From Azoarcus sp. (GTDB lineage Bacteria; Pseudomonadota; Gammaproteobacteria; Burkholderiales; Rhodocyclaceae), in NCBI GenBank assembly GCA_031268685.1, contig JAIRWW010000033.1:1-14361 (forward strand): a stretch of DNA of 14,361 bases, given 5' to 3'. Below are positions 1,324 through 13,817 of this stretch, piece by piece. The position numbers and the translations under genes are program-made. Each line of letters begins with the position of its first letter. The first letter of the stretch is position 1. The notes beneath the pieces are model-generated. The model had not been told where the DNA came from, ran no database searches, and saw only the letters and a list, made by a program, of their open reading frames with translations.

Positions 1324-1985
1324 AAAACAAAGCGACACTGAAATGGCAAACGCAGTGCGGCAGAAATACCGAAAATCCGGCGAGATGCTTGAGCGTTGTT
1401 TTCATGTTGTTGTCAACCGGCTGAAAGTTTTTCCAGAGACGGCGCCTGACTTTGCGAGGGTGAGCCGTGCCTGATTGGAAAAGCATTATCCTTTTCCGCC
1501 CGAGGAGAAAAGGCCGGGTTACGTTTTGCCACTCTCCTGCTGGCGGGAAGTGGCGCGGAGATAATCCGCCGATCCACTTCTTGCAGGGAGAAATGCAAGT
1601 CCAATGTATGCGACACATTCGTTTGAATCGCATCCGAGGTGGCGTTTCCATTTGATAAAAGATTGGGCGGAGGCATATAATCGGGTGCTGCGCTTTTTTG
1701 ACAAGCGCAGGTCATCCAAGAAAAGCCGGGGAAAACAGGGTGAGCCTTTTCGGAAACAGCCAGATCATGGGGCGCGAAGGCGCTGTGGGTGGGTGTTTGT
1801 GCAAAATTTCTCCCGTTTTCGTGTTTTTCCCCGCGACGCTTTCCCCCGCCAGTTTCCCGTCTTCCTCCCGCCGTCTCCTGCCTTGGAGCGCATCGCCGGC
1901 CCCTGGGCCGGTTTGTTCCAGGGCATCGCGCGCGGGCGGATGCCGTATCCGAGCGATTCGATAAATACCGTGATGAAAGGACACA
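1324..1985. other. Gene-poor region upstream of the autotransporter
   Basis: No convincing coding region is seen on either strand: the open frames have arginine- and proline-rich, frame-shadow composition and no recognisable motif. An 8-bp palindrome (CTGCGCTT/AAGCGCAG, 1688-1710) holds a TTGACA at 1698-1703, but I see no credible -10 box at the right distance. The region presumably contains the autotransporter promoter and a leader. A Shine-Dalgarno AAAGGA occurs at 1976-1981. Confidence 0.5.
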
Positions 1986-4289
1986 ATGATGCGTTCGAAA
2001 AAATCCCAAGGTTCTCCGTCCCGTTTTCCGCGCCGCCCCGCCGAGCACACGCGCTTCCCGAAGACGAAGATTTTTCTCCTGGTTTCCAGCCTTCTCGTCC
2101 CGGCGGCGACGTTTGGGCAGCAAGTGAACAGCCTCAGTAATTTATCTAGCGCCTTGCACTCGGGTGGCACAGTAACGGTTCCCGTCAGCGGCGTTGCTTT
2201 TGGATCCACCGCAGAGGCGGTCACCGGCATCCCCGCCAGTACCACGCTTAAAGGTGCCACGGCGAGCGGGTTTACGTCGAGCATCGAGGCAATGACAGCC
2301 GACATTCTCAAGGTGATGTACCAGCGGAAAGGCGACGCGACCGACACGCTGCTCGCCGATTCTGTGTGGACGCAGGTCGGCGGTTTCACGCCGTCCGGGC
2401 TGAGTTTCATTCAGGGAGTGGTCAGCCAGAACAGAGGAACGCAGCCTACGAGCAACCAGACAGCTTTTAATCGCTCCCGCTGGCTGACGACGAGCAACAA
2501 TTTTGGTTTCAACAACGTGCATTTCAGAAATGTAGTGGTAGAAAATACATTTACCTACAATCCTGACCCTCCTGCCACTGGCGCTGGCGGCATGGTCAAC
2601 GGATTGATCGGAAATGTCGACAACAACACCGGCAACATCGCTTTTACCCAGATCACCGACAATGCCTTTACAGACATCGAGGTCGGCCTGGCGGGCTATC
2701 GGGATACGCACTACATGGCCGGCGGCGGCATCGTCGGTCTCAGAGCCACGGCCGGTTCGGTTTCCACTGAAAAGATCGAAGGCAATGTGTTCAAAACCAT
2801 CACGGTAAAAACGACCGATCGCAGTGGGAAAACTACTGGAGCAGGCCTTGTCCAAAGCGCCTATATCGAAGGGGGCGGCATCATCGGCCTCGACGCGGTT
2901 TCTTCGCCGGCGAAGATATCTGGCCATGCCGAGCTTGGGTCGTTGTCCTCCAATCTTTTCACCGGCATAACGGTAGGTTCCGGCGACATCATCCTGGGCG
3001 GCGGCGTGGTGGGCGTGAACAACAACAGCCAGAATTACAATGACTCCACCTACGCGAAAATAAAAGAAGTCTCCGGCAACATCTTCGGCAACGGCGCGAC
3101 CGGGGACATTGACGTCAGCGCCTACTACTCCCTGCGCGGCGGCGGGGTGATCGGCATCAACGGTCTTTCCAACGCGGCGGTGCAGATGGACTTTCTCACC
3201 AACAACGTCTTCGCGGGCATTGCGGTGGAATCGGAAGCCAGCTACATCAAAGGCGGCGGCATCGTGGGCCTGCAGAGCAATGACAACGACCCCAACCCCA
3301 ACCCCAAACCCAAAGAAGATCATACTTACGATCCGGTTAACGACGAATCGGCCCGCAACTTTCTCCACGTCGCGGACAACAACCTTTTCCTGAATGCCCA
3401 AGTCACAGCCGGCACCTATCTCGACGGCGGCGGCATCATCGGCCTGCGGGCCAACACGGGCGCGGCCTACCTCAGCAGCCTGACGAACAATGTTTTCAAA
3501 GATCTGACGATAACAACGAAGGGACCCGACACTACAGACACTACATATTCTCTGCGCGGCGGCGGCATCGTCGGCGTGTCTTCCGGGACACAGGGGGTCG
3601 TGGGGAGTGTCACGGGCAATTATTTCGGCGACTTGAAGGTAAGCACGGCGGGCAAGCTGCGTGGCGGCGGTATCCTCGGGGCGCAGGTCGACAGCGATGG
3701 TGATTCTTCTTCTGCCGCTATCCTCAGCGAGATCACGGGCAACAGATTCATCGGTCTCAACGTCGACGCCGGCGGCGCGATCCTGGGCGGCGGCATCATT
3801 GGCGTCGAGAATCCGGACGGGCAGAGGAACGGCTTGACGACAGTGGACAACAACCACTTCGACCAGATCACGGTTCACTCGGATTCCTTCCTGTCTGGCG
3901 GCGGCGTCGTCGGCGTCCGGGCGGTGGGGGGACACGCGGTGATCGAGACCCTCACCAACAGTCAGTTCTACGGAAGTTGGGGGGGGGGGGCAAGACGGAT
4001 GTTAGCGCCAATGAATACCTCGAAGGCGGCGGCATCGTCGGCGTTCGCTCCGACACCGGCGGCTCGATCGGGACGATCGACAACACCTGGTTTGCCGGTT
4101 GGAGAGTCACGGCGGGCACCTTTATCGATGGCGGCGGCATCGTCGGCGCGACCGGCTCCACTGGCGACTACATTGCCACCGGCATCACCAGCATCGTCGA
4201 CAGCGTCTTCTACGGTAATGAGATCAGGGCCAAGAACGGGCAGATCATGGGCGGCCTGGTCTACAGCTACGGCTTGGCCGGCGGCTTGA
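1986..4289 (+). CDS. Autotransporter passenger, N-terminal part (frame broken at poly-G tract)
   Basis: This is the upstream portion of a type Va autotransporter adhesin-like protein. ATG codons lie at 1986 and 1989; AAAGGA (1976-1981) is better spaced for 1989. A basic, extended N-terminus precedes a hydrophobic stretch (KIFLLVSSLLVPAATFG), predicting signal peptidase cleavage near residue 44. The passenger carries ten GGG[IV][IVL]G motifs at residues near 246, 296, 338, 385, 423, 481, 525, 560, 601 and 638, each preceded by an NN.F or N.F motif. The arrangement is typical of a right-handed beta-helix and recalls the FxxN/GGA[ILV] repeats of Chlamydia Pmp proteins. In-frame homology ends at residue 665 in a run of 12 G (3979-3990). 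The remaining ~100 residues are an out-of-frame tail rich in Ala, Ser, Arg and Pro, ending at 4289. As written, the product would be secreted to the periplasm without a translocator. Confidence 0.85.
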   Translation: MMRSKKSQGSPSRFPRRPAEHTRFPKTKIFLLVSSLLVPAATFGQQVNSLSNLSSALHSGGTVTVPVSGVAFGSTAEAVTGIPASTTLKGATASGFTSSIEAMTADILKVMYQRKGDATDTLLADSVWTQVGGFTPSGLSFIQGVVSQNRGTQPTSNQTAFNRSRWLTTSNNFGFNNVHFRNVVVENTFTYNPDPPATGAGGMVNGLIGNVDNNTGNIAFTQITDNAFTDIEVGLAGYRDTHYMAGGGIVGLRATAGSVSTEKIEGNVFKTITVKTTDRSGKTTGAGLVQSAYIEGGGIIGLDAVSSPAKISGHAELGSLSSNLFTGITVGSGDIILGGGVVGVNNNSQNYNDSTYAKIKEVSGNIFGNGATGDIDVSAYYSLRGGGVIGINGLSNAAVQMDFLTNNVFAGIAVESEASYIKGGGIVGLQSNDNDPNPNPKPKEDHTYDPVNDESARNFLHVADNNLFLNAQVTAGTYLDGGGIIGLRANTGAAYLSSLTNNVFKDLTITTKGPDTTDTTYSLRGGGIVGVSSGTQGVVGSVTGNYFGDLKVSTAGKLRGGGILGAQVDSDGDSSSAAILSEITGNRFIGLNVDAGGAILGGGIIGVENPDGQRNGLTTVDNNHFDQITVHSDSFLSGGGVVGVRAVGGHAVIETLTNSQFYGSWGGGARRMLAPMNTSKAAASSAFAPTPAARSGRSTTPGLPVGESRRAPLSMAAASSARPAPLATTLPPASPASSTASSTVMRSGPRTGRSWAAWSTATAWPAA

Positions 4290-6490
4290 CCATCACCGAC
4301 AGCATTTTTTCGGATAACGTTTTCTATTCGGACGTTACGTCCTCATATGCCGGAATCCAGATCGGACCGAAAGTGTATGGTGCTGTGACCGTGGATACCG
4401 GTGTGGTCGCGCCTTCAGGTTCTCATACACTCACCCTGAAGGCCACTTCCACAGGCAGCACGCAGTTCATGCGCAACGAGACCTACGAAAATGGCAAGCT
4501 GGTCCGTGCCCATTCCCTCTACTTCGGGACGATTCCCAGCCTGACGGGACTGAAAGGCAATAACAGCTTGCGAGCTGAAGCCAATACAGCCCAGGCTGAC
4601 GCGGCGCTCATCATCGACACCCACGGAGTGCTCCTCTACGGAGTGCTCCTCTATGATCCGATCTGGGTCAATCAGGACGGTGGCAAAACCTTCAACATGA
4701 CGGTTCAGGGCGGCGGCGACTTTTTCTGGAACGGTGTGAACACTTTCACTGTTGGCGCGCCGGGAACGATCAAGGTGAATTCCGGCATCACCACTTTCAT
4801 GAACGACGGTTTATCCGATCCCTTCACCCTCGTCGCGCCCGACCACAGTTTCTCCCTCGCGCCGGAAGCGCGGATCAACGTCATGGGCAGAAACACTATG
4901 ACCCTCGCCCACGCCGACCTGCAAGGCACTCTTTTTTTTAACCTGTACGCAACCACCAAGGACAAGTCGGAGACTGCGCTCCTGACCCTGCACACGTCCG
5001 AGGCGGTCAATATCGACGGGAGCATCATCCGGCTCAACAATTTCGGGGCCGGGCCGATTTTTCAGGCGGGTGACAGTTTCTATCTGATCCGTACCGACGG
5101 TAAAGACTTCCTGCAAGGCAACCCCGCCAATAACCACGCCTATGCCCGCCAGGGATTGCTCGTCGGCTATAACTTCATCATCGACAAAAAGCCGTATGGA
5201 ATGGATGAGGATGGAAACCAGTATCTCGTCGCCCGGCTGGAAGAACAAAAAGCACAGGTGGATCCCAATCCGCCGGTCGTCTACATGTCATCCCCGTCTG
5301 TCCCGTCTACCCCACAAGAAAGTGACCCGACCACCCCGCCCACCCCGTCGCCGCAACCGACCCCGACTCCTGTCCCGGAGGGCGACCCGCCTGCCCCACC
5401 CGTGCCGCCTGAGCTGCCTGTCTCACCGCCGGTCATTCCGCCGGTCAACCCGTCGGGCAACACGCCGGTCAACCCGCCGCCGGTCAACCCGTCCCCGGTC
5501 ATCCCGGCTTCCGGTGGTATGCCACCGATCGGCCCCGCCCTTGAGACCACGGTGCTGGTCGGCGGACGGGCCGCGGGCCTGGCTTTCCTCGCCCAACGGG
5601 ACGGCTGGCTGCCGGATCACAGCTATCAGGCCGCCGACCTCGCGCTGGACGAGAACCGGAGCGAACGCGCCTGGGTTCCCTTCGGCGGCGTCGACGCCGC
5701 CCGCCTGCACGTCAAGACGGGTTCCCACATCAAGATGACGAGCAGCAACATGCTGCTTGGCCTGGCCACCCGCCGCCGCGGCGATTCGGGTGTCTTCCTC
5801 TTTGGCGCCTTCATGGAAGCGGGCCATGCCGACTACGACACGCGCAACCACTTCTCCGGCCTGCTGCCGGAGATTCGCGGCGACGGCAAGCTGTGCGCCC
5901 TCGGCGGCGGTCTGATGGCCCGCCATACCTGGAACAACGATTTCCGGATCGAGGCCTCCCTGCGGGGCGGGCGCCTGAAAAACGAGTTCCGCGCGAAGAA
6001 TTACGAGGATCCTGATACCCTCGCGCCCGCCAGCTACAAGCTCCACGACCGCTATCTCGCCGCGCATCTGGGCGTGGGACACGGTTGGCAAATCAGCGAG
6101 AAAAACAAACTCGATCTCCTGTTCCGCTACTATTGGAGCCGCCAGGAAGGCGGTAACGCCACGCTGTCCAACGGCGAACGGATGCGTTTCGAAGACGACG
6201 ATTCGCGGCGCGCCCGGGTTGGAGGACGCTGGACCCATACGTGGGAGGAAAACCGTTTCTGGTACATCGGCGCCGCCGTGGAGCGCGAATTCGACAGCAA
6301 AGCCAAGGCCAGCGCCTACGGTTTCGACTTTGACGCGCACGACTTCGAGGGCACGGTGGCCATTGGCGAAATCGGAGTGATCATCCGCTCCCACAAAAAC
6401 AGCCCGTTCTCGCTCGAAGCCGGTCTCCAGGGATACACCGGGAAATTCAAGGGGGTATCCGGCGGTGTGAGAATCGGCTGGGAGTTCTAA
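3977..6490 (+). CDS. Autotransporter C-terminal part: passenger end, proline-rich linker and beta-barrel
   Basis: This frame continues the passenger directly after the poly-G tract, with GGGIVGVRS and GGGIVGATG repeats and a degenerate MGGLVYS. The nominal TTG at 3977 has no ribosome site of its own, so it is the rest of the preceding gene rather than an independent one. Order (residues from 3977): passenger to ~425; a linker of Pro, Thr, Ser and Val with VNP and PVNPSP repeats at ~430-513; autotransporter beta-barrel (PF03797-type) at ~520-837, with alternating aromatic/hydrophobic strands and a final ...RIGWEF, the terminal Phe recognised by the BAM complex. The barrel length (~310 residues) is normal. 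With 13 G the fused protein would have 1501 residues, with 10 G 1500. A 15-base tandem duplication lies within it. A strong terminator follows the TAA by about 90 bases. Confidence 0.88.
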   Translation: MGGGGKTDVSANEYLEGGGIVGVRSDTGGSIGTIDNTWFAGWRVTAGTFIDGGGIVGATGSTGDYIATGITSIVDSVFYGNEIRAKNGQIMGGLVYSYGLAGGLTITDSIFSDNVFYSDVTSSYAGIQIGPKVYGAVTVDTGVVAPSGSHTLTLKATSTGSTQFMRNETYENGKLVRAHSLYFGTIPSLTGLKGNNSLRAEANTAQADAALIIDTHGVLLYGVLLYDPIWVNQDGGKTFNMTVQGGGDFFWNGVNTFTVGAPGTIKVNSGITTFMNDGLSDPFTLVAPDHSFSLAPEARINVMGRNTMTLAHADLQGTLFFNLYATTKDKSETALLTLHTSEAVNIDGSIIRLNNFGAGPIFQAGDSFYLIRTDGKDFLQGNPANNHAYARQGLLVGYNFIIDKKPYGMDEDGNQYLVARLEEQKAQVDPNPPVVYMSSPSVPSTPQESDPTTPPTPSPQPTPTPVPEGDPPAPPVPPELPVSPPVIPPVNPSGNTPVNPPPVNPSPVIPASGGMPPIGPALETTVLVGGRAAGLAFLAQRDGWLPDHSYQAADLALDENRSERAWVPFGGVDAARLHVKTGSHIKMTSSNMLLGLATRRRGDSGVFLFGAFMEAGHADYDTRNHFSGLLPEIRGDGKLCALGGGLMARHTWNNDFRIEASLRGGRLKNEFRAKNYEDPDTLAPASYKLHDRYLAAHLGVGHGWQISEKNKLDLLFRYYWSRQEGGNATLSNGERMRFEDDDSRRARVGGRWTHTWEENRFWYIGAAVEREFDSKAKASAYGFDFDAHDFEGTVAIGEIGVIIRSHKNSPFSLEAGLQGYTGKFKGVSGGVRIGWEF
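3979..3990 (+). repeat. Poly-G(12) tract, candidate phase-variation switch
   Basis: Twelve consecutive G lie inside the autotransporter reading frame. The upstream frame reads TGG GGG GGG GGG GCA, while the passenger repeat pattern continues in the frame GGC AAG ACG GAT. Joining the frames needs a total of 13 G (gain of one) or 10 G (loss of two). Tracts of this length are hypermutable by slipped-strand mispairing in contingency genes of Campylobacter, Neisseria and Helicobacter. Confidence 0.85.
4625..4654 (+). repeat. In-frame 15-bp tandem duplication
   Basis: GGAGTGCTCCTCTAC (4625-4639) is followed by GGAGTGCTCCTCTAT (4640-4654), duplicating the peptide GVLLY in the late passenger. One base differs, so the duplication is not brand new. 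Being a multiple of three, it changes length without breaking the frame. Confidence 0.9.
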
Positions 6491-6565
6491 GAACCTGTTT
6501 TCGATCTTTCAGGCGGGCAGGACAGGCCCCGTCGGGGCCTGAGATTCTTGCGGCGCTTTGCGCCG
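6490..6565. repeat. Palindrome cluster 2 (partial)
   Basis: Starting at the last base of the autotransporter stop codon, AGAACCTGTTTTCGATC is the inverse of the edge of cluster 1 (1307-1323). It is followed by GGCGGGCAGGACAGG, the hairpin AGGCCCC/GGGGCCT near 6523-6540 and CGGCG/CGCCG at 6551-6565. The left edge of cluster 4 (14075-14110) matches closely. Confidence 0.75.
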
Positions 6566-6577
6566 GGACGTCAGGAT

Positions 6578-6608
6578 CAGTGGGACGCTGAAAGCGTCCC
6601 ACTGTTTT
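6578..6608 (+). terminator. Rho-independent terminator of the autotransporter gene
   Basis: A perfect 12-bp stem, CAGTGGGACGCT (6578-6589) and AGCGTCCCACTG (6593-6604), closes a GAA loop and is followed by TTTT. It lies 88 bases after the autotransporter stop codon. Confidence 0.85.
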
Positions 6609-6659
6609 ACGCCAGAAAGAAAAACACAACCTCCAACCCCGCATCCTGATCCCTGATTG

Positions 6660-7128
6660 GTGATGCTTCGCATCAAAAGTTTTACGACCGGCGGGCTGCA
6701 CCCGCCCTACTTACTCGGAGAGGAAGGTGGGGTTTTGCCTCCCTCGGTGAGGGAGGTGTCGCGCGGCGAAAGCCGCGTGACGGAGGGAGTCGGTGCGGAG
6801 AGCGGGCAAGAGGGTGCGGAGAGCGGGCAAGAGGGTGCGGAGAGCGGGCAAGAGGGTGCGGAGAGTGGACAAGAAATAACGCTTGCTGTCGCTGTTACGG
6901 CTGCGACTCCTTCCGACTCGCCTTCGGCGAGCCACCTTCCTCAAGAGGAAGGCTTGGGCTTGCGACGCTTCGCGTCGGGTTCAGGGATCAGAGGTCAGGA
7001 ATCAGGGATCAGTAGTTTTGCGGCGACAAGCGCCTGAAAGGAAAGGAAAAACCAAATGAGCATCCAGCGTAATTACCCAATCACTAATTTCCGGCAGTGC
7101 TGCCATCGCACTCCACAATCTGATCACT
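6660..7128 (-). repeat. Dispersed repeat family R1, copy C (inverted, expanded)
   Basis: This is the reverse complement of copy B: it begins with the GATGCTTCGCATC palindrome and AGTTTTACGACCGGCGGGC, and ends with GGCAGTGCTGCCATCGCACT. It differs from copy B by an array of four 21-base units where copies A and B have a single unit. It stands in inverted orientation on the far side of the autotransporter gene. Confidence 0.88.
6792..6875 (+). repeat. 21-bp tandem array (4 units)
   Basis: Four head-to-tail units of the form GGTGCGGAGAGCGGGCAAGA plus one base start at 6792, 6813, 6834 and 6855. The first three are identical; the last has three changes (GTGGAC in place of GCGGGC, and a final A). 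It lies inside repeat copy C. Confidence 0.92.
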
Positions 7129-7686: not shown

Positions 7687-7802
7687 GCTTGTGTAGGCTT
7701 GGCAGAACGGTGAAGGTTGCACATTCCCTGCATCGTCTGTGCCACGCGCTGAACACAGCAGGCGAGGAAGCATGGATATTGCCAGCATCGTATGCTCTTT
7801 AT

Positions 7803-7837
7803 TGCCGGGATGCCATTCTCCAGGGGGCATCCCGGCA
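7803..7837 (+). promoter_or_regulatory. Perfect hairpin in the leader of the Crp/Fnr-type gene
   Basis: TGCCGGGATGCC (7803-7814) pairs perfectly with GGCATCCCGGCA (7826-7837) around an 11-base loop. It ends 17 bases before the preferred start at 7855 and overlaps two alternative upstream ATG codons (7810, 7837). There is no T tract, so it is more likely a translational control structure or an operator palindrome than a terminator. Confidence 0.5.
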
Positions 7838-7854
7838 TGAAAGGGGACGCTGAC

Positions 7855-8574
7855 ATGATTGCTGGAGCGGCAGATATCGACTCTTGCCGATCCGAATCCT
7901 GGTTGAAGCAAACACAATTGCTGCGGGGTCTTCCAGAGCGCCTGATCCGGCATGTTGCAAGCCATATGACGGAACGCCAGTTATGCGACAAGGAAATCCT
8001 GTTCTTGCAACACGATCCCTGTCATTTCATCGGAATTGTCGTCGACGGAATGATTTACCACGTCCTCTTCAACCCGGATGGACGCGAATTGATCATTGAG
8101 CGCAGCGCCCCCGGTCAAGTCATCGGGATAACCGCGTTGATCGGTCAGGAGTTGCGCTGCGAAACGGCCTGCGCTTCTGGCGTCACGCGGATACTCATTC
8201 TATCGCGCGCTCATTTTCAGCTGCTATTGAAAGAACGGGCCTTTCTCGAGCGTCTGCTGGACATTTTCAAAACGCAGGTTGAAGCGCATATCTCCTTCAT
8301 TGAGACGATGTGTCTTTATCCGCTGGAGGTTCGTCTGGCGCGTCATTTGCTGGACAACCTGCAAGCCTCGGGGACGGCAACACCGCATGTCCGCCTGCCT
8401 GCCTATCAAGGCTTGCTTGCCTCGATGATCAATGCCAGCCGCCCCAAGCTGAACGCCAGTCTGCAAGCGTGGAAACGTCAGGGGCTGGCGCACATCCGGC
8501 AAGACTGCCTTCTGATTGACGATCTGTCGCAAATTCGTTGCAAAGCGTGTCTGCGCACGCTGTCACCCAGGTAA
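7855..8574 (+). CDS. Crp/Fnr-family transcriptional regulator of the R-body locus
   Basis: A 239-residue protein of normal Crp/Fnr length. Residues ~20-130 form the cyclic-nucleotide-binding-like beta-roll, with the hallmark FIGIVVDGMIYHVLFNPDGR and the glycine turn APGQVIG. The long dimerisation helix is at ~131-155. A C-terminal winged helix-turn-helix lies at ~158-225, with a recognition region ASMINASRPKLNASLQAWKR. No Fnr-type N-terminal cysteine cluster is seen; two cysteines near the C-terminus (RCKAC) are unusual. The start at 7855 is chosen because AAGGGG stands 8 bases upstream and because the upstream ATGs lie in a hairpin. It begins the R-body island, 58 bases before the sigma factor gene, with which it is probably co-transcribed. 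The effector ligand cannot be told. A role in activating the reb genes is inferred from position only. Confidence 0.9.
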   Translation: MIAGAADIDSCRSESWLKQTQLLRGLPERLIRHVASHMTERQLCDKEILFLQHDPCHFIGIVVDGMIYHVLFNPDGRELIIERSAPGQVIGITALIGQELRCETACASGVTRILILSRAHFQLLLKERAFLERLLDIFKTQVEAHISFIETMCLYPLEVRLARHLLDNLQASGTATPHVRLPAYQGLLASMINASRPKLNASLQAWKRQGLAHIRQDCLLIDDLSQIRCKACLRTLSPR

Positions 8575-8632
8575 CAGACGCGCACCCGAATTTTTTCCAG
8601 ACTGTCTCTGTGTCAATGACAGGGAGCGTCGT

Positions 8633-9172
8633 ATGGAAGACGAGTGCGCGGAAACAGAGACCGCTGACGCATGCTTTACGGCAAGCTGGCGCGCCGTTCA
8701 TGAAAAACTGAACCGCAGGGCGCGTTATCTGGCAAAGGGCGATCATGCCCGCGCCGAAGACCTGCTTTCCTGCACCGCCATCAAATCTTTGCAATTACTG
8801 CGTCGTTCAGCAAAGCGTATCCATAACCCGGAAGGCTTCCTGTTTCTGGTCCTGCAACATACCCACATAGACAGCCTGCGCCGTGAACAACGGGAAAATC
8901 GGATATTCGACCACGCGGAGGCAGAATACATCGAGCAAATCGCCGTGCCGCAATCTCCGCTGGAATACCTGAGCCACAAAAGAACAGTGGAAATGCTTGC
9001 CCGGCTCGTTTCTCGCCTGCCGCCAGTGCAACAGCAGTTGCTCACGCTGGCCTTCATCAATGGTGCTTCGTATGCGGAAATAGCTGCCTGCCTGGGGATC
9101 AGTAATGCGCTGGTGCGCAAGCGCATCCAGTTGTTGCGCGACAAATTGCGCCTTTTACTGCCGTTCCCATAA
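8633..9172 (+). CDS. ECF-like sigma-70 family RNA polymerase sigma factor
   Basis: A 179-residue protein, the usual size of ECF sigma factors. Region 2 spans ~15-92, with AEDLL (41-45), NPEGFLF (65-71) and the IDSLRREQR stretch (79-87). Region 4 spans ~115-175, with LPPVQQQLL followed by the helix-turn-helix YAEIAACLGIS...VRKRIQLLRDKL. There is no region 1 or 3. The ATG at 8633 follows AGGGAG with a short spacer; the open frame extends upstream to 8516 but there overlaps the preceding gene and loses sigma similarity. No anti-sigma gene is adjacent. Two matching promoter-like motifs precede the reb genes downstream, so the likely target is the R-body operon itself. R-body genes of Pseudomonas aeruginosa are, as I recall, also controlled by an ECF-type sigma factor. 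Confidence 0.87.
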   Translation: MEDECAETETADACFTASWRAVHEKLNRRARYLAKGDHARAEDLLSCTAIKSLQLLRRSAKRIHNPEGFLFLVLQHTHIDSLRREQRENRIFDHAEAEYIEQIAVPQSPLEYLSHKRTVEMLARLVSRLPPVQQQLLTLAFINGASYAEIAACLGISNALVRKRIQLLRDKLRLLLPFP

Positions 9173-9295: not shown

Positions 9296-9538
9296 ATGGC
9301 CGATTCCACAGCAGTCAATGCGCAAATTACCGATTCCGTCACTCAAACCAACGTCAAGGTCATTGCCGAAGCGCCTGCCCAGGCAATGGCGGCGCTCTAT
9401 CAGGTCGCCAGCCATGCCAGCGGGTTATCGCTGCAAAACGCCGTGCACAGCCAGCAATCGCTCAACCAGATTTCCACCGCTGTGGTCTCGAAAGCCGTCG
9501 CGCTCATCATGGCGATTGGTGAGAAAAGCCCAAAATGA
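9296..9538 (+). CDS. Short RebB-like R-body protein
   Basis: An 80-residue protein of the RebB family (Pfam RebB, 'killing trait'), whose members polymerise into R-bodies, coiled protein ribbons first known from Caedibacter endosymbionts of Paramecium. The N-terminal half matches the two RebB paralogues downstream: VNAQITDSVTQTNVKVIAEA, then the A.A...L.Q...H..G....NAV..QQ pattern. It lacks the conserved second half (NMGVMQ.YSLDTA.GAGAAEK) and instead ends in KAVALIMAIGEKSPK. CAGGAG lies shortly upstream of ATG 9296. It is the first gene after the candidate promoter. The short length could mean a capping or nucleating subunit rather than a main ribbon component; that is inference. Confidence 0.82.
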   Translation: MADSTAVNAQITDSVTQTNVKVIAEAPAQAMAALYQVASHASGLSLQNAVHSQQSLNQISTAVVSKAVALIMAIGEKSPK

Positions 9539-10249: not shown

Positions 10250-12460
10250 ATGTCTTATTTCGAACTTTCAAAGCCGGTTGTTGGATTGTTTCCGTACCCA
10301 TTTGATTTTCATAGCCACTTTACGGGAATTTTGCCGTTGGAGAGCGATATCAAGTGGAGTGGTGATAGAGTGGAATTCGACACGAAAGATAAAAAAAAAT
10401 TTGTTATCGATAAAACCGAAGACGAAGACTTGGAGCTTTCCATCATCGGCATGATCGTAAGAGCAATAAAGGGCAAAAAGGGTAAAAATGAATGTAGAAT
10501 AGAGGCGCACTACAAACTGTTCGATATGGTTTTACAAAACATCATCAAGCAGAATCCATTCAATACGACAAAAATCGGAGGCTATCAACGCGGTGAATGC
10601 GCGGCGGAAAACATCTACATCGCCTGCTGCCTGTTGCTGCAAAACATAGGGATTCACACGAATTACGAAATTGACAAATCCGATATCTATGATGTGGTGC
10701 GGTCTCTTTTGAGCACAAAAAACTCGCCTGTCAAAAACGAAAAAAACCAACATATTGTTGCTTATTTCAACCGCAAAATATTCACTGCGAACAAATATAC
10801 GCCATTTGACGACGCGTACTGGGCGCGGGACGCTATTCGCGATGAGGATAAATTTGCATTCAAAAAATTTTTCAACTGGACGACACTCTGCTATCTCTAC
10901 GAATCCGGTATTCGCTACAGCCAAATTGCCGCTAGTGTCAGGGCAGTCAAAGAACTGGATCCCTACTTTACAGAATTCAATGGAAAATTGAAAGCAGCCT
11001 ACAAACTGCTGGCCCACTCGCCGCATGTATATTCAGACAAGGATGAATTTTTGAAGCAACTCAACGAAATCATGGAGTTGTTCAAGATCGATAGTCAGAA
11101 ACCAAAATACAACAATCTTGTCGGCATTGATCTTCTGGCGCCCGAAAACAAGACCGGTTTGTATGGAGATTTTTTTAAATTTCTCAACATCAAAGAAAAT
11201 AAGAAAGTCTTCAGTGATTACGTTGGAACTCAAGCCCTCAAACCCTGTAAAAAAATAATTATCCACATTCACTGCGGCGAAGGGGGCAGTCAGTCTGAAG
11301 ACAACCGTTCTCTGAGCGGCTACTTTCTCAGCCATGCGTTCCCTGCGGTGCCACGGAATAAATTTTTTAAATTCCTGGCAGGGTATGCCAGGAAATGCTA
11401 TCAAAATACTCTCTCCCGCAAGGATGAGCGCGAACGGGAGCGGAAAAATCTTGCGCATAACATAAAAGATTACAGCGAAATATCCAGCTTGCTCGATGAA
11501 TTGTTTTACCTGAACACACTGAGCTTCGAGGGCCTGCAACTCCGTCGCTTCGATATCAGCAGCCAGGCATCCCATGATCTGGTGGTTTATAATGGCCAAA
11601 TCAACATTACCCATCTTTGCGAGGAATTAGAAAAGGTGCCAGAGGGAGAGGACAAAGATGGAGATAAAAATTATTATGAATTGCTATGCGATCCAGGAGT
11701 GTCTAAACCAACACCCTATTCATTCCGTATTGGTCATGCTTATTATGCCCGCAATTACGTAGTCAGCAAATTTCCAGCGCTGTATTATGACACCAATCTG
11801 GGCAGCAATTTCATCACTGGCGCATCCGGTCTTTTCGATTCCGCGCAAATTTATCGGCTCAACAAGGGATTCCGGCATCTGAATGGCAGTATCGATACCG
11901 ATATTCTCGAACAGACGATGGACAGGGTTGCCTATATGGGCATTGAACGCCTGAATGAAGAGCAGATCGCACTGGTTAGTAAAAACGAGAATCAGATCAG
12001 CAATGAAGATTATAAAAAATTGGGGATTGTCGAAGAAACAACAATAGAATATGTGAGAGTTTTTTTAAATACACTCTGTTGGGGAGAAAATCCTCCCGAT
12101 GAAAACCTTAAACGTCACCGCACTCTCCTGCTGGCGCTGATTGCCAACTGGCGCTCTTACATGTTTGGCGCAGATGGTCAGGGCGTCGAGCATTCCGATA
12201 TTGAGGTAGAAGCCGCCCGGATGGCGCTGATGCTGGCTTACCGATTGAGCGGCGAATTCAAAGGAGAGATTCCCGCTGACCTCATCCAAAATCTTTCCAA
12301 GTTATTCTACCTTATCTCTAAAAAATACTGGGAAGAAACCATCGGAGAATGTAGTGCGCCGGAGAGTCTCTCAAAGTACACCGTTGAAAATTTTCATGGA
12401 TTCAAGTCTCCTCACTCTATCGTTCTGGTCAAGGCCGAACGAAAGAAAATAGTGTTGTAG
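10250..12460 (+). CDS. Large adenosine-deaminase-like metallohydrolase (R-body-linked)
   Basis: A 736-residue protein with AAGGAG 7 bases before ATG 10250. The metal-site motifs of adenosine deaminase (amidohydrolase superfamily) appear in order: DFHSHFTG (HxH, H21 and H23), GID (292-294, compare VGIDLAGDE), HIHCGEG (H341 metal ligand, E344 catalytic), FRIGH (H496, compare RIGHG), and IDTD (548-551, where D551 may replace the metal-ligand Asp of TDDP; the following residue is Ile). Classical ADA has ~340-350 residues, so about 390 residues are extra, mainly between HxH and GID and between HCGE and RIGH. Large size with split motifs recalls RdrB of the RADAR anti-phage system, but no RdrA ATPase is present. 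The gene is visibly more AT-rich than its neighbours, suggesting a separate origin. No signal peptide is seen. The substrate is unknown; deamination of a purine nucleoside or nucleotide is the reasonable guess. Confidence 0.72.
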   Translation: MSYFELSKPVVGLFPYPFDFHSHFTGILPLESDIKWSGDRVEFDTKDKKKFVIDKTEDEDLELSIIGMIVRAIKGKKGKNECRIEAHYKLFDMVLQNIIKQNPFNTTKIGGYQRGECAAENIYIACCLLLQNIGIHTNYEIDKSDIYDVVRSLLSTKNSPVKNEKNQHIVAYFNRKIFTANKYTPFDDAYWARDAIRDEDKFAFKKFFNWTTLCYLYESGIRYSQIAASVRAVKELDPYFTEFNGKLKAAYKLLAHSPHVYSDKDEFLKQLNEIMELFKIDSQKPKYNNLVGIDLLAPENKTGLYGDFFKFLNIKENKKVFSDYVGTQALKPCKKIIIHIHCGEGGSQSEDNRSLSGYFLSHAFPAVPRNKFFKFLAGYARKCYQNTLSRKDERERERKNLAHNIKDYSEISSLLDELFYLNTLSFEGLQLRRFDISSQASHDLVVYNGQINITHLCEELEKVPEGEDKDGDKNYYELLCDPGVSKPTPYSFRIGHAYYARNYVVSKFPALYYDTNLGSNFITGASGLFDSAQIYRLNKGFRHLNGSIDTDILEQTMDRVAYMGIERLNEEQIALVSKNENQISNEDYKKLGIVEETTIEYVRVFLNTLCWGENPPDENLKRHRTLLLALIANWRSYMFGADGQGVEHSDIEVEAARMALMLAYRLSGEFKGEIPADLIQNLSKLFYLISKKYWEETIGECSAPESLSKYTVENFHGFKSPHSIVLVKAERKKIVL

Positions 12461-13090: not shown

Positions 13091-13423
13091 ATGGCTTTTC
13101 CAACCGCAGTCAATGATCAAGTAACAGATGCCATTACCCAATCCAATGTCAAGGTGATCGGCGAATCGCCTGCGATGGCGCTGGGCAATCTTTACCAGGC
13201 GATGGCGCATTCCACGGGAATCCTGTTTGAAAATGCCGTTTCGGCCCAGCAACAGCAAAACACGCTGGCGCTGGCTGCCGCCAACATGGGCGTCATGCAG
13301 ATTTATTCGCTGGATACGGCAACCGGCGCAGGGGCTGCCGAAAAAGGAGGACAGGTTGGCGTGGCGGACACCCTCATTAGCTTCCTGTCCGTGCTCAATT
13401 CACTCCAACCGGTCGGAGCATGA
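13091..13423 (+). CDS. rebB: R-body structural protein RebB, paralogue 1
   Basis: A 110-residue RebB-family protein of usual length. It contains TDAITQSNVKVIGESPA, QAMAHSTGILFENAV, a QQQQ stretch, and NMGVMQIYSLDTA.GAGAAEK, all nearly identical to paralogue 2, with about three quarters of residues identical by eye. Proteins of this family assemble into insoluble ribbons coiled inside the cell, which in Caedibacter unroll at low pH; there is no signal peptide, consistent with cytoplasmic assembly. AAAAGGAG precedes ATG 13091. The gene follows a candidate ECF promoter and is followed, after a short hairpin, by its paralogue. Two co-expressed RebB-type subunits are common in R-body loci. Confidence 0.92.
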   Translation: MAFPTAVNDQVTDAITQSNVKVIGESPAMALGNLYQAMAHSTGILFENAVSAQQQQNTLALAAANMGVMQIYSLDTATGAGAAEKGGQVGVADTLISFLSVLNSLQPVGA

Positions 13424-13475: not shown

Positions 13476-13817
13476 ATGGCTTATCCCACTTCCGTCAACA
13501 ATCAAATCACCGATGCTGTCACCCAATCCAATGTGAAAGTCGTTGGCGAAGCGCCAGCCATCGCTTTGGGGTCGTTGTTTCAGGCGATGGCGCATTCCAC
13601 GGGCATTTTGTTTGAAAACGCAGTAGCGGCGCAACAGCAGCAAAACACGCTGTCGCAGACAGCGTCCAACATGGGCGTCATGCAAGTCTACTCGCTGGAT
13701 ACCGCAGTCGGCGCGGGTGCTGCCGAAAAAGCAGGACAGATCGGTGTGGCGGAAAATCTCACCAGCTTCTTGACGCTGTTAAACACCTTCAAGTCCAAAA
13801 AATCGCCAGGACTGTAA
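13476..13817 (+). CDS. rebB: R-body structural protein RebB, paralogue 2
   Basis: A 113-residue RebB-family protein with VNNQITDAVTQSNVKVVGEA, QAMAHSTGILFENAV, QQQQNTL and NMGVMQVYSLDTAVGAGAAEK. AGAGGAG precedes ATG 13476 by a short spacer. It lies 52 bases after paralogue 1 with only a small hairpin between, so both are probably on one transcript. Nucleotide similarity to paralogue 1 is high with many silent changes, which indicates an older tandem duplication under selection on the protein. It differs most at the C-terminus (KSKKSPGL against LQPVGA). It is the last gene of the island, followed by a strong terminator. Confidence 0.92.
   Translation: MAYPTSVNNQITDAVTQSNVKVVGEAPAIALGSLFQAMAHSTGILFENAVAAQQQQNTLSQTASNMGVMQVYSLDTAVGAGAAEKAGQIGVAENLTSFLTLLNTFKSKKSPGL

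What the first reader, a model, noticed from the sequence alone, without database searches (positions are those of the whole stretch)
3979..3990. Poly-G(12) switch inside a giant autotransporter gene
The tract sits exactly where the passenger repeat pattern moves from one frame to another. The present length (12) is OFF; 13 or 10 G would give one protein of about 1500 residues with signal peptide, beta-helix passenger and beta-barrel. Both halves show intact repeats and no other disruption, as expected for a contingency locus rather than a decaying gene. Homopolymer sequencing error is the main alternative.
Basis: partly seen in the sequence, partly recalled or inferred. Interest (0 to 1): 0.85.

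Follow-up and report, generated by a model that had tools for sequence, protein, structure and literature searches.

The report
Poly-G frame break in autotransporter gene
In a bacterium related to termite-gut species, a run of twelve G's puts the two halves of a surface-protein gene out of step, so the protein is probably off in this assembly and may be able to flip on and off, as is known for similar genes in other bacteria.

Summary
G12 at 3979-3990 lies where one autotransporter frame passes into another: 10 of 11 spacings between repeat marks are multiples of three, the one across the tract is not, and codon-position GC changes phase there. Both halves are otherwise open. Separate AlphaFold models give a beta-helix upstream and, downstream, the helix's end, a Pro linker, an alpha-helix and a 12-stranded barrel like EspP, BrkA and NalP. 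Same-genus genomes belong to a termite-gut MAG set. Orthologues in 7 of 20 same-genus genomes, and 48 named family loci (which include those 7), are each one open frame. None of the 7 has the tract at this site, so it is lineage-specific. Nine of the 48 carry G or C runs of 8-12 elsewhere, all in frame, which argues against routine miscounts, although that set is NovaSeq/MEGAHIT data with many poly-G contig ends. Best reading: a slippage-prone tract caught in an OFF class, as in known phase-variable autotransporters. Length variation and switching are not shown; no reads or second isolate were reached. Miscount and recent decay stay open. 'Giant' overstates it: about 1,500 residues is normal for the family. 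New member of a known kind.

The parts
3979..3990 (+). G12 homopolymer tract at the frame change
   Evidence: Sequence; motif spacing and GC3 phase change
1986..3977 (+). Upstream in-frame part, 664 codons: N-terminus and beta-helix passenger with GGGIVG-type repeats
   Evidence: ORF list; homology to 7 orthologues; AlphaFold mean pLDDT 85.9, beta-helix
3991..4289 (+). Out-of-frame tail of the upstream ORF, ending at a stop
   Evidence: ORF 1986-4289; the tail is seen in the catalogued protein P0079
3992..6487 (+). Downstream in-frame part, 832 codons: end of passenger, linker, translocator
   Evidence: homology; AlphaFold mean pLDDT 84.1
3992..5239 (+). C-terminal part of the beta-helix (residues 1-416 of the downstream piece)
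   Evidence: DSSP of the model
5252..5521 (+). Pro-rich, low-confidence linker
   Evidence: pLDDT mostly under 50 in residues 421-508; short tandem repeats 5426-5506
5540..6481 (+). Alpha-helix and 12-stranded beta-barrel (autotransporter translocator)
   Evidence: Foldseek to EstA, EspP, AIDA-I, BrkA, Hbp, NalP
1986..2123 (+). Signal-peptide-like N-terminus (basic stretch, then a hydrophobic stretch)
   Evidence: Read from the sequence; no predictor was run
1976..1981 (+). Shine-Dalgarno-like AAAGGA before the start at 1986
   Evidence: Read from the sequence
1652..1681 (+). Sigma-70-like match, 11 of 12; weak evidence
   Evidence: 2 matches found in 1500-6900 against 1.4 expected in shuffles

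Best explanation
The gene encodes a classical (type Va-like) autotransporter, a surface beta-helix anchored by a 12-stranded barrel, in a bacterium of a genus whose named members are termite-gut 'Azoarcus'/Zoogloeaceae MAGs. A lineage-specific G tract arose in a loop between beta-helix strands. Slippage of such a tract during replication (established for G/C tracts in other bacteria, inferred here) would move the gene between length classes, only one of which keeps the two halves in one frame. The assembled sequence shows an OFF class: translation would leave the frame at the tract and stop at 4289, giving a passenger fragment without its barrel, so no surface protein. Shown: tract, frame change, intact halves, predicted folds, whole orthologues. 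Inferred: slippage, reversibility, loss of surface display, any benefit.
For: The frame change falls on the tract by two independent signals. No other stop or frame break in about 4.5 kb. Orthologues in 7 of 20 other same-genus genomes, and 48 of 48 named loci (which include the contigs of those 7), show one open frame each; 34 of the 48 are complete, 14 cut by the end of the stretch. In five near relatives the matching stretch is a loop of variable length, a place that tolerates extra residues. Nine of 48 family loci carry a G or C run of 8-12 inside the frame. At three Gly sites compared, run length is bimodal: at R-G-G-G 43 of 44 loci have at most 5 G and one has 12, as expected if single lineages grow a tract. 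G runs of 11 or more: 3 against 0.73 in codon shuffles, reached in 11 of 300 (the window's own tract not counted). Precedent: poly-C tracts in the coding sequences of nalP and mspA set ON/OFF, confirmed by immunoblot for NalP (PMC3723659, passages).
Against: No length variation seen: no second genome or protein of the species (24 and 57 scored capped candidate lists). The tract is absent at this site in all 7 orthologues. In this Gly-rich family runs of 9 or 10 G are no more than codon shuffles give (>=9: 6 against 8.6; >=10: 3 against 3.0), runs of 6-8 are fewer than expected, and >=12 is 1 against 0.25, reached in 68 of 300. Poly-G runs of 12 or more occur in 17 of 21 genus genomes; in 10 of the 17 loci listed first, one per genome, they lie within about 115 bases of a contig end. 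The named relatives come from NovaSeq reads assembled with MEGAHIT (PMC11257099, passages), a chemistry that, from general knowledge, can add false G. Of 6 runs well inside contigs that I read, only one (L136) lies well inside an open frame.
Confidence: 0.58

Rival explanations
1. Assembly or sequencing miscount: the living cells carry a tract of the in-frame class and the consensus length is wrong.
For: A fragmented genome (344 contigs, 82.8% complete). The termite-gut set that holds its same-genus kin was sequenced on NovaSeq 6000 and assembled with MEGAHIT (PMC11257099, passages). Poly-G lies at many contig ends in the genus, including a G16 that ends contig C266 of this genome.
Against: The contig was not broken at the tract. 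In relatives from the same set 9 of 9 G/C runs of 8-12 inside the family frame leave the frame open (one, C10 in L081, may lie before the true start), 3 of 3 among G runs of 11 or more; random miscounts would leave about a third in frame. Runs of 9 in this genome's DnaX, in a phosphatidylserine-decarboxylase frame and in a WecA-like frame (named by eye, no Pfam match) are also in frame.
Confidence: 0.2
2. Early pseudogene: a one-off slip in a tract with no regulatory role has killed the gene, which will now decay.
For: The tract is lineage-specific. Only 7 of 20 same-genus genomes were found to have the gene (several are incomplete), so it seems dispensable. Autotransporter decay independent of tract length is described for Campylobacter capC (PMC7168839, passages). 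A broken TraI_2-like gene with a C11 run and, by eye, at least one other frame change exists in this genome.
Against: No second lesion in about 4.5 kb, and codon-position GC is kept to the end of the barrel, so any decay is recent.
Confidence: 0.17
3. Leaky expression: RNA polymerase or ribosome slippage on the G run yields some full-length protein although the DNA is out of frame.
For: Long homopolymers can be slippery templates (general knowledge; no call).
Against: No recoding signal was sought. Recalled cases of transcript slippage mostly use A/T runs.
Confidence: 0.05

Closest known systems
NalP and MspA of Neisseria meningitidis (phase-variable autotransporters)
   Same: Autotransporter with a homopolymeric G/C tract inside the coding sequence whose length sets the frame (PMC3723659, passages). 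NalP's barrel is among the structural matches of the downstream half (1uyo, TM by target 0.82).
   Different: A different passenger: a GGGIVG-repeat beta-helix here. Switching is shown there and only inferred here. A different lineage and habitat.
CapD autotransporters of Campylobacter
   Same: Poly-G tract within the open reading frame of an autotransporter in many members (PMC7168839, passages).
   Different: There the tract position is described as conserved in the genus; here it is absent at this site in 7 of 7 same-genus orthologues. No sequence relation was tested.
GGGIVG-repeat autotransporter family of termite-gut MAGs
   Same: Same passenger and barrel; the window's halves match single open frames (48 loci; 106 proteins at E <= 0.001 in a capped search, some of them distant).
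   Different: None of the 48 loci is frame-broken; some carry long G runs at other sites, in frame.

Membership tests
Classical (type Va) autotransporter | 12-stranded C-terminal beta-barrel with an alpha-helix | tested here: met
   Model with a helix at 517-551 and 12 long strands at 559-830; Foldseek TM by target up to 0.71 (EspP), 0.86 (BrkA), 0.82 (NalP)
Classical (type Va) autotransporter | N-terminal passenger, usually a right-handed beta-helix | tested here: met
Classical (type Va) autotransporter | Sec signal peptide | not tested
   Read by eye only; no predictor run
Classical (type Va) autotransporter | Match to a curated autotransporter profile (supporting, not defining) | tested here: not met
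   Pfam 0 families up to E 10 and NCBIfam 0 up to E 1 on the in-frame pieces; some relatives carry a precomputed PF03797. Filed by fold, not by profile
Simple-sequence-repeat phase-variable locus | Homopolymer inside the coding sequence at the frame change | tested here: met
Simple-sequence-repeat phase-variable locus | Coding sequence otherwise intact on both sides | tested here: met
Simple-sequence-repeat phase-variable locus | Tract length differs between siblings of one species | tested here: inconclusive
   No second copy of the species found; no reads available
Simple-sequence-repeat phase-variable locus | Reversible ON/OFF switching of the protein | not testable with these tools
   Needs culture, reads or protein data

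The most novel reading that the evidence does not exclude
One autotransporter family shared across termite-gut phyla repeatedly and independently gains poly-G contingency tracts at different Gly sites (G11-G12 in members labelled Desulfovibrio, Burkholderiaceae and Deltaproteobacteria, and in the window's lineage), so hindgut symbionts use phase variation of a common surface beta-helix much as mucosal bacteria do, perhaps against phages, protists or the host.
Probability: 0.22. Interest if true: 0.6.

Novelty: new member of a known kind. Interest (0 to 1): 0.38.

Why it matters
If the tract really varies, it would extend homopolymer phase variation of autotransporters, best known from mucosal bacteria of vertebrates, to uncultured termite hindgut symbionts. 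It also names a gene family in which this can be tested from existing metagenome reads without culture. If it does not vary, it is a caution about reading poly-G tracts in short-read genomes as switches.

Tried and rejected
Tract conserved in orthologues: rejected, 0 of 7 have it at this site. Same-species copies in the protein collection: none found; the window's own pieces came back only from the 14,361-base contig (P0079; P0107, 2 member sequences, 1 contig). Both searches scored only about 8,000 candidates, and admits no protein over about 1,465 residues. A mismatch-repair defect as driver: not supported; MutS_V is present in this genome, MutS_I and the MutL domain were not found, but the genome is 82.8% complete, so inconclusive. 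Tract as an RNA element: no Rfam match at gathering score in the window. PDB sequence search with the barrel profile: one irrelevant hit at E 0.75, so folds were compared instead. Source of the named relatives: PMC9137090 (metaSPAdes, k up to 71) does not fit the k119 contig names; PMC11481507 gives BioProjects only in the passages seen; PMC11257099 fits (termite guts, MAG accessions JAIRJQ-JAITXW, PRJNA732531, NovaSeq 6000, MEGAHIT up to k 119; passages). Sample-code searches gave nothing more (listings, passages). Literature on autotransporters in termites or homopolymer phase variation in insect-gut bacteria: search listings only, no paper on this gene seen.

Flank control: 7 G/C runs of 9 or more in 203,799 bases of family frames against 0 inside 413,161 flanking bases, plus one at a contig end. 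It looks like enrichment, but one search shows that Gly coding alone can give runs of that length, so it is not used as main evidence. Runs of 7 or more do not differ (19 against 39).

Full report
What is there. The window is contig C344 (14,361 bases) of a genome of 2.21 Mb in 344 contigs, 82.8% complete. A poly-G run of exactly 12 lies at 3979-3990. Upstream, ORF 1986-4289 is in one frame; downstream, ORF 3977-6490 is in another. Twelve GGG[IV]xG-type marks of the repeat lie between 2721 and 4130. Ten of their 11 spacings are multiples of three; the one across the tract is 128 nt. GC at the third codon position moves from one position class to another at the same place. In the alignments the upstream homology runs to the Ser coded at 3975-3977 and the downstream homology begins at or just after the Lys at 3992, so little but the tract lies between them.

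Relatives. Orthologues were found in 7 of 20 other same-genus genomes, and in none of the 39 genomes outside the genus in that search. In a draw of 150 genomes of the family only this genome and one of another genus (G153) matched; the G153 match has a TAA near its start, before a 533-residue open frame that ends with its contig. In named genomes 48 loci were found: Azoarcus, Zoogloeaceae, Desulfovibrio, Synergistaceae, Planctomycetaceae, Burkholderiaceae, Methylobacteriaceae, 'Deltaproteobacteria'. All 48 accessions lie in the range JAIRJQ-JAITXW, which one paper gives for its termite-gut MAGs (NovaSeq 6000, MEGAHIT; PMC11257099, passages). Each of the 48 loci has one open frame for the family (pieces under 50 residues or E above 1e-10 would be missed). 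Thirty-four are not cut by the end of the stretch (1,315-1,963 residues stop to stop, median 1,570) and 14 are. Among these loci and the window, only the window's gene is frame-broken.

Is the tract conserved? No. None of the 7 orthologues has a run of 8 or more G at this site; two have a G9 elsewhere. In five near relatives (P0015, P0005, P0008, P0004, P0037) the stretch is a loop of variable length without a Gly run of its own.

Long G runs in the family. Nine of 48 loci carry a G or C run of 8-12 within the frame, one of them (C10, L081) in a stretch that may precede the true start. All nine leave the frame open. They sit at different places, mostly Gly-Gly-Gly or Trp-Gly-Gly sites. At three such sites compared, most relatives have G runs of 2-6 and a few have 8-12. 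Under codon shuffles that keep each protein and its codon counts (50 pieces, 300 shuffles), runs of 6-8 are rarer than expected (>=6: 41 against 103), >=9 and >=10 as expected or fewer (6 against 8.6; 3 against 3.0), >=11 commoner (3 against 0.73, reached in 11 of 300), >=12 not clearly so (1 against 0.25, reached in 68 of 300). I read the long tail as slippage growth in single lineages. The support is modest, and Gly coding explains much of the rest.

Background of poly-G. This genome has 13 G/C runs of 9 or more. One ends a contig (G16, C266). One (C11) lies in a TraI_2-like gene with, by eye, at least one other frame change. DnaX, a phosphatidylserine-decarboxylase frame and a WecA-like frame (named by eye; no Pfam match) have runs of 9 in frame. 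A G12 lies at the 5' end of a 354-residue frame and a C10 just before a pilin-like frame. The others lie at gene edges or where I saw no clear gene. In the genus 17 of 21 genomes have a run of 12 or more; in 10 of the 17 loci listed first, one per genome, it lies within about 115 bases of a contig end. Of 30 loci returned I read 8. Of the 6 well inside contigs only one (L136) lies well inside an open frame, which stays open across it; the other five lie within about 85 bases of an end of the stop-to-stop frames that hold them.

How it most likely works. Slipped-strand mispairing in G/C tracts is the accepted cause of ON/OFF switching in several bacteria. In Neisseria meningitidis the poly-C tracts inside nalP and mspA set expression, confirmed by immunoblot for NalP (PMC3723659, passages), and Campylobacter CapD genes can carry poly-G in the coding sequence (PMC7168839, passages). 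Here the assembled length is in an OFF class: the ribosome would leave the frame at the tract and stop at 4289, leaving a passenger fragment without a barrel. The rivals are a miscounted homopolymer, a recent dead-end mutation, and leaky slippage. The miscount is favoured by the platform and the poly-G contig ends, and weakened by the 9 of 9 in-frame runs in relatives of the same data set; the dead end is weakened by the absence of a second lesion. None is excluded, because no reads and no second genome could be reached.

Known or new. The mechanism is known and so is the kind of gene. A termite-gut member was not seen in my searches (listings only). The part worth following is the family: one beta-helix autotransporter shared by several phyla of one habitat, with long G tracts in several unrelated members. 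In a tree of 43 rows (42 of the 48 loci and the window; six had no usable block or were cut) the five phylum labels need 7 changes, least possible 4, shuffled mean 22.8, so it mostly follows phyla with some mixing; 19 of 40 inner branches are unresolved.

Noticed in passing
9296-9538, 13091-13423, 13476-13817: Three RebB-family genes (PF11747, 'Killing trait') beside a Crp-type regulator (7792-8574) and an ECF-type sigma factor (8516-9172): an R-body-like cluster downstream of the autotransporter.
   Followed up: no
10250-12460: A 736-residue frame at lower GC (about 0.44) inside the R-body-like cluster, without a Pfam, NCBIfam or PADLOC match; it holds HSHF and HCGEG stretches that, from recall, resemble metal-dependent deaminases.
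   Followed up: partly
L061, 4240-4249: A C10 run (read on the minus strand) 15 bases before the start of a type IV pilin-like frame (N_methyl, PF07963), a possible second homopolymer switch at the level of translation or promoter.
   Followed up: no
L055, 992-1003: A G12 run at the 5' end of a 354-residue open frame without Pfam match, between two possible ATG codons.
   Followed up: no
L065-L112: The same autotransporter family in termite-gut MAGs labelled Pseudomonadota, Desulfovibrio, Synergistota, Planctomycetota and Deltaproteobacteria; the tree mostly follows phyla with some mixing, and bins may hold foreign contigs.
   Followed up: partly
L054, about 2433-3388: A TraI_2-like conjugation gene with a C11 run between its parts and, by eye, at least one further frame change.
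   Followed up: partly
6792-6874 and 94-949: A 21-base tandem repeat (4 copies), and stretches of the window that code the same words (for example VGAESGQ) at several places, probably dispersed repeats.
   Followed up: no
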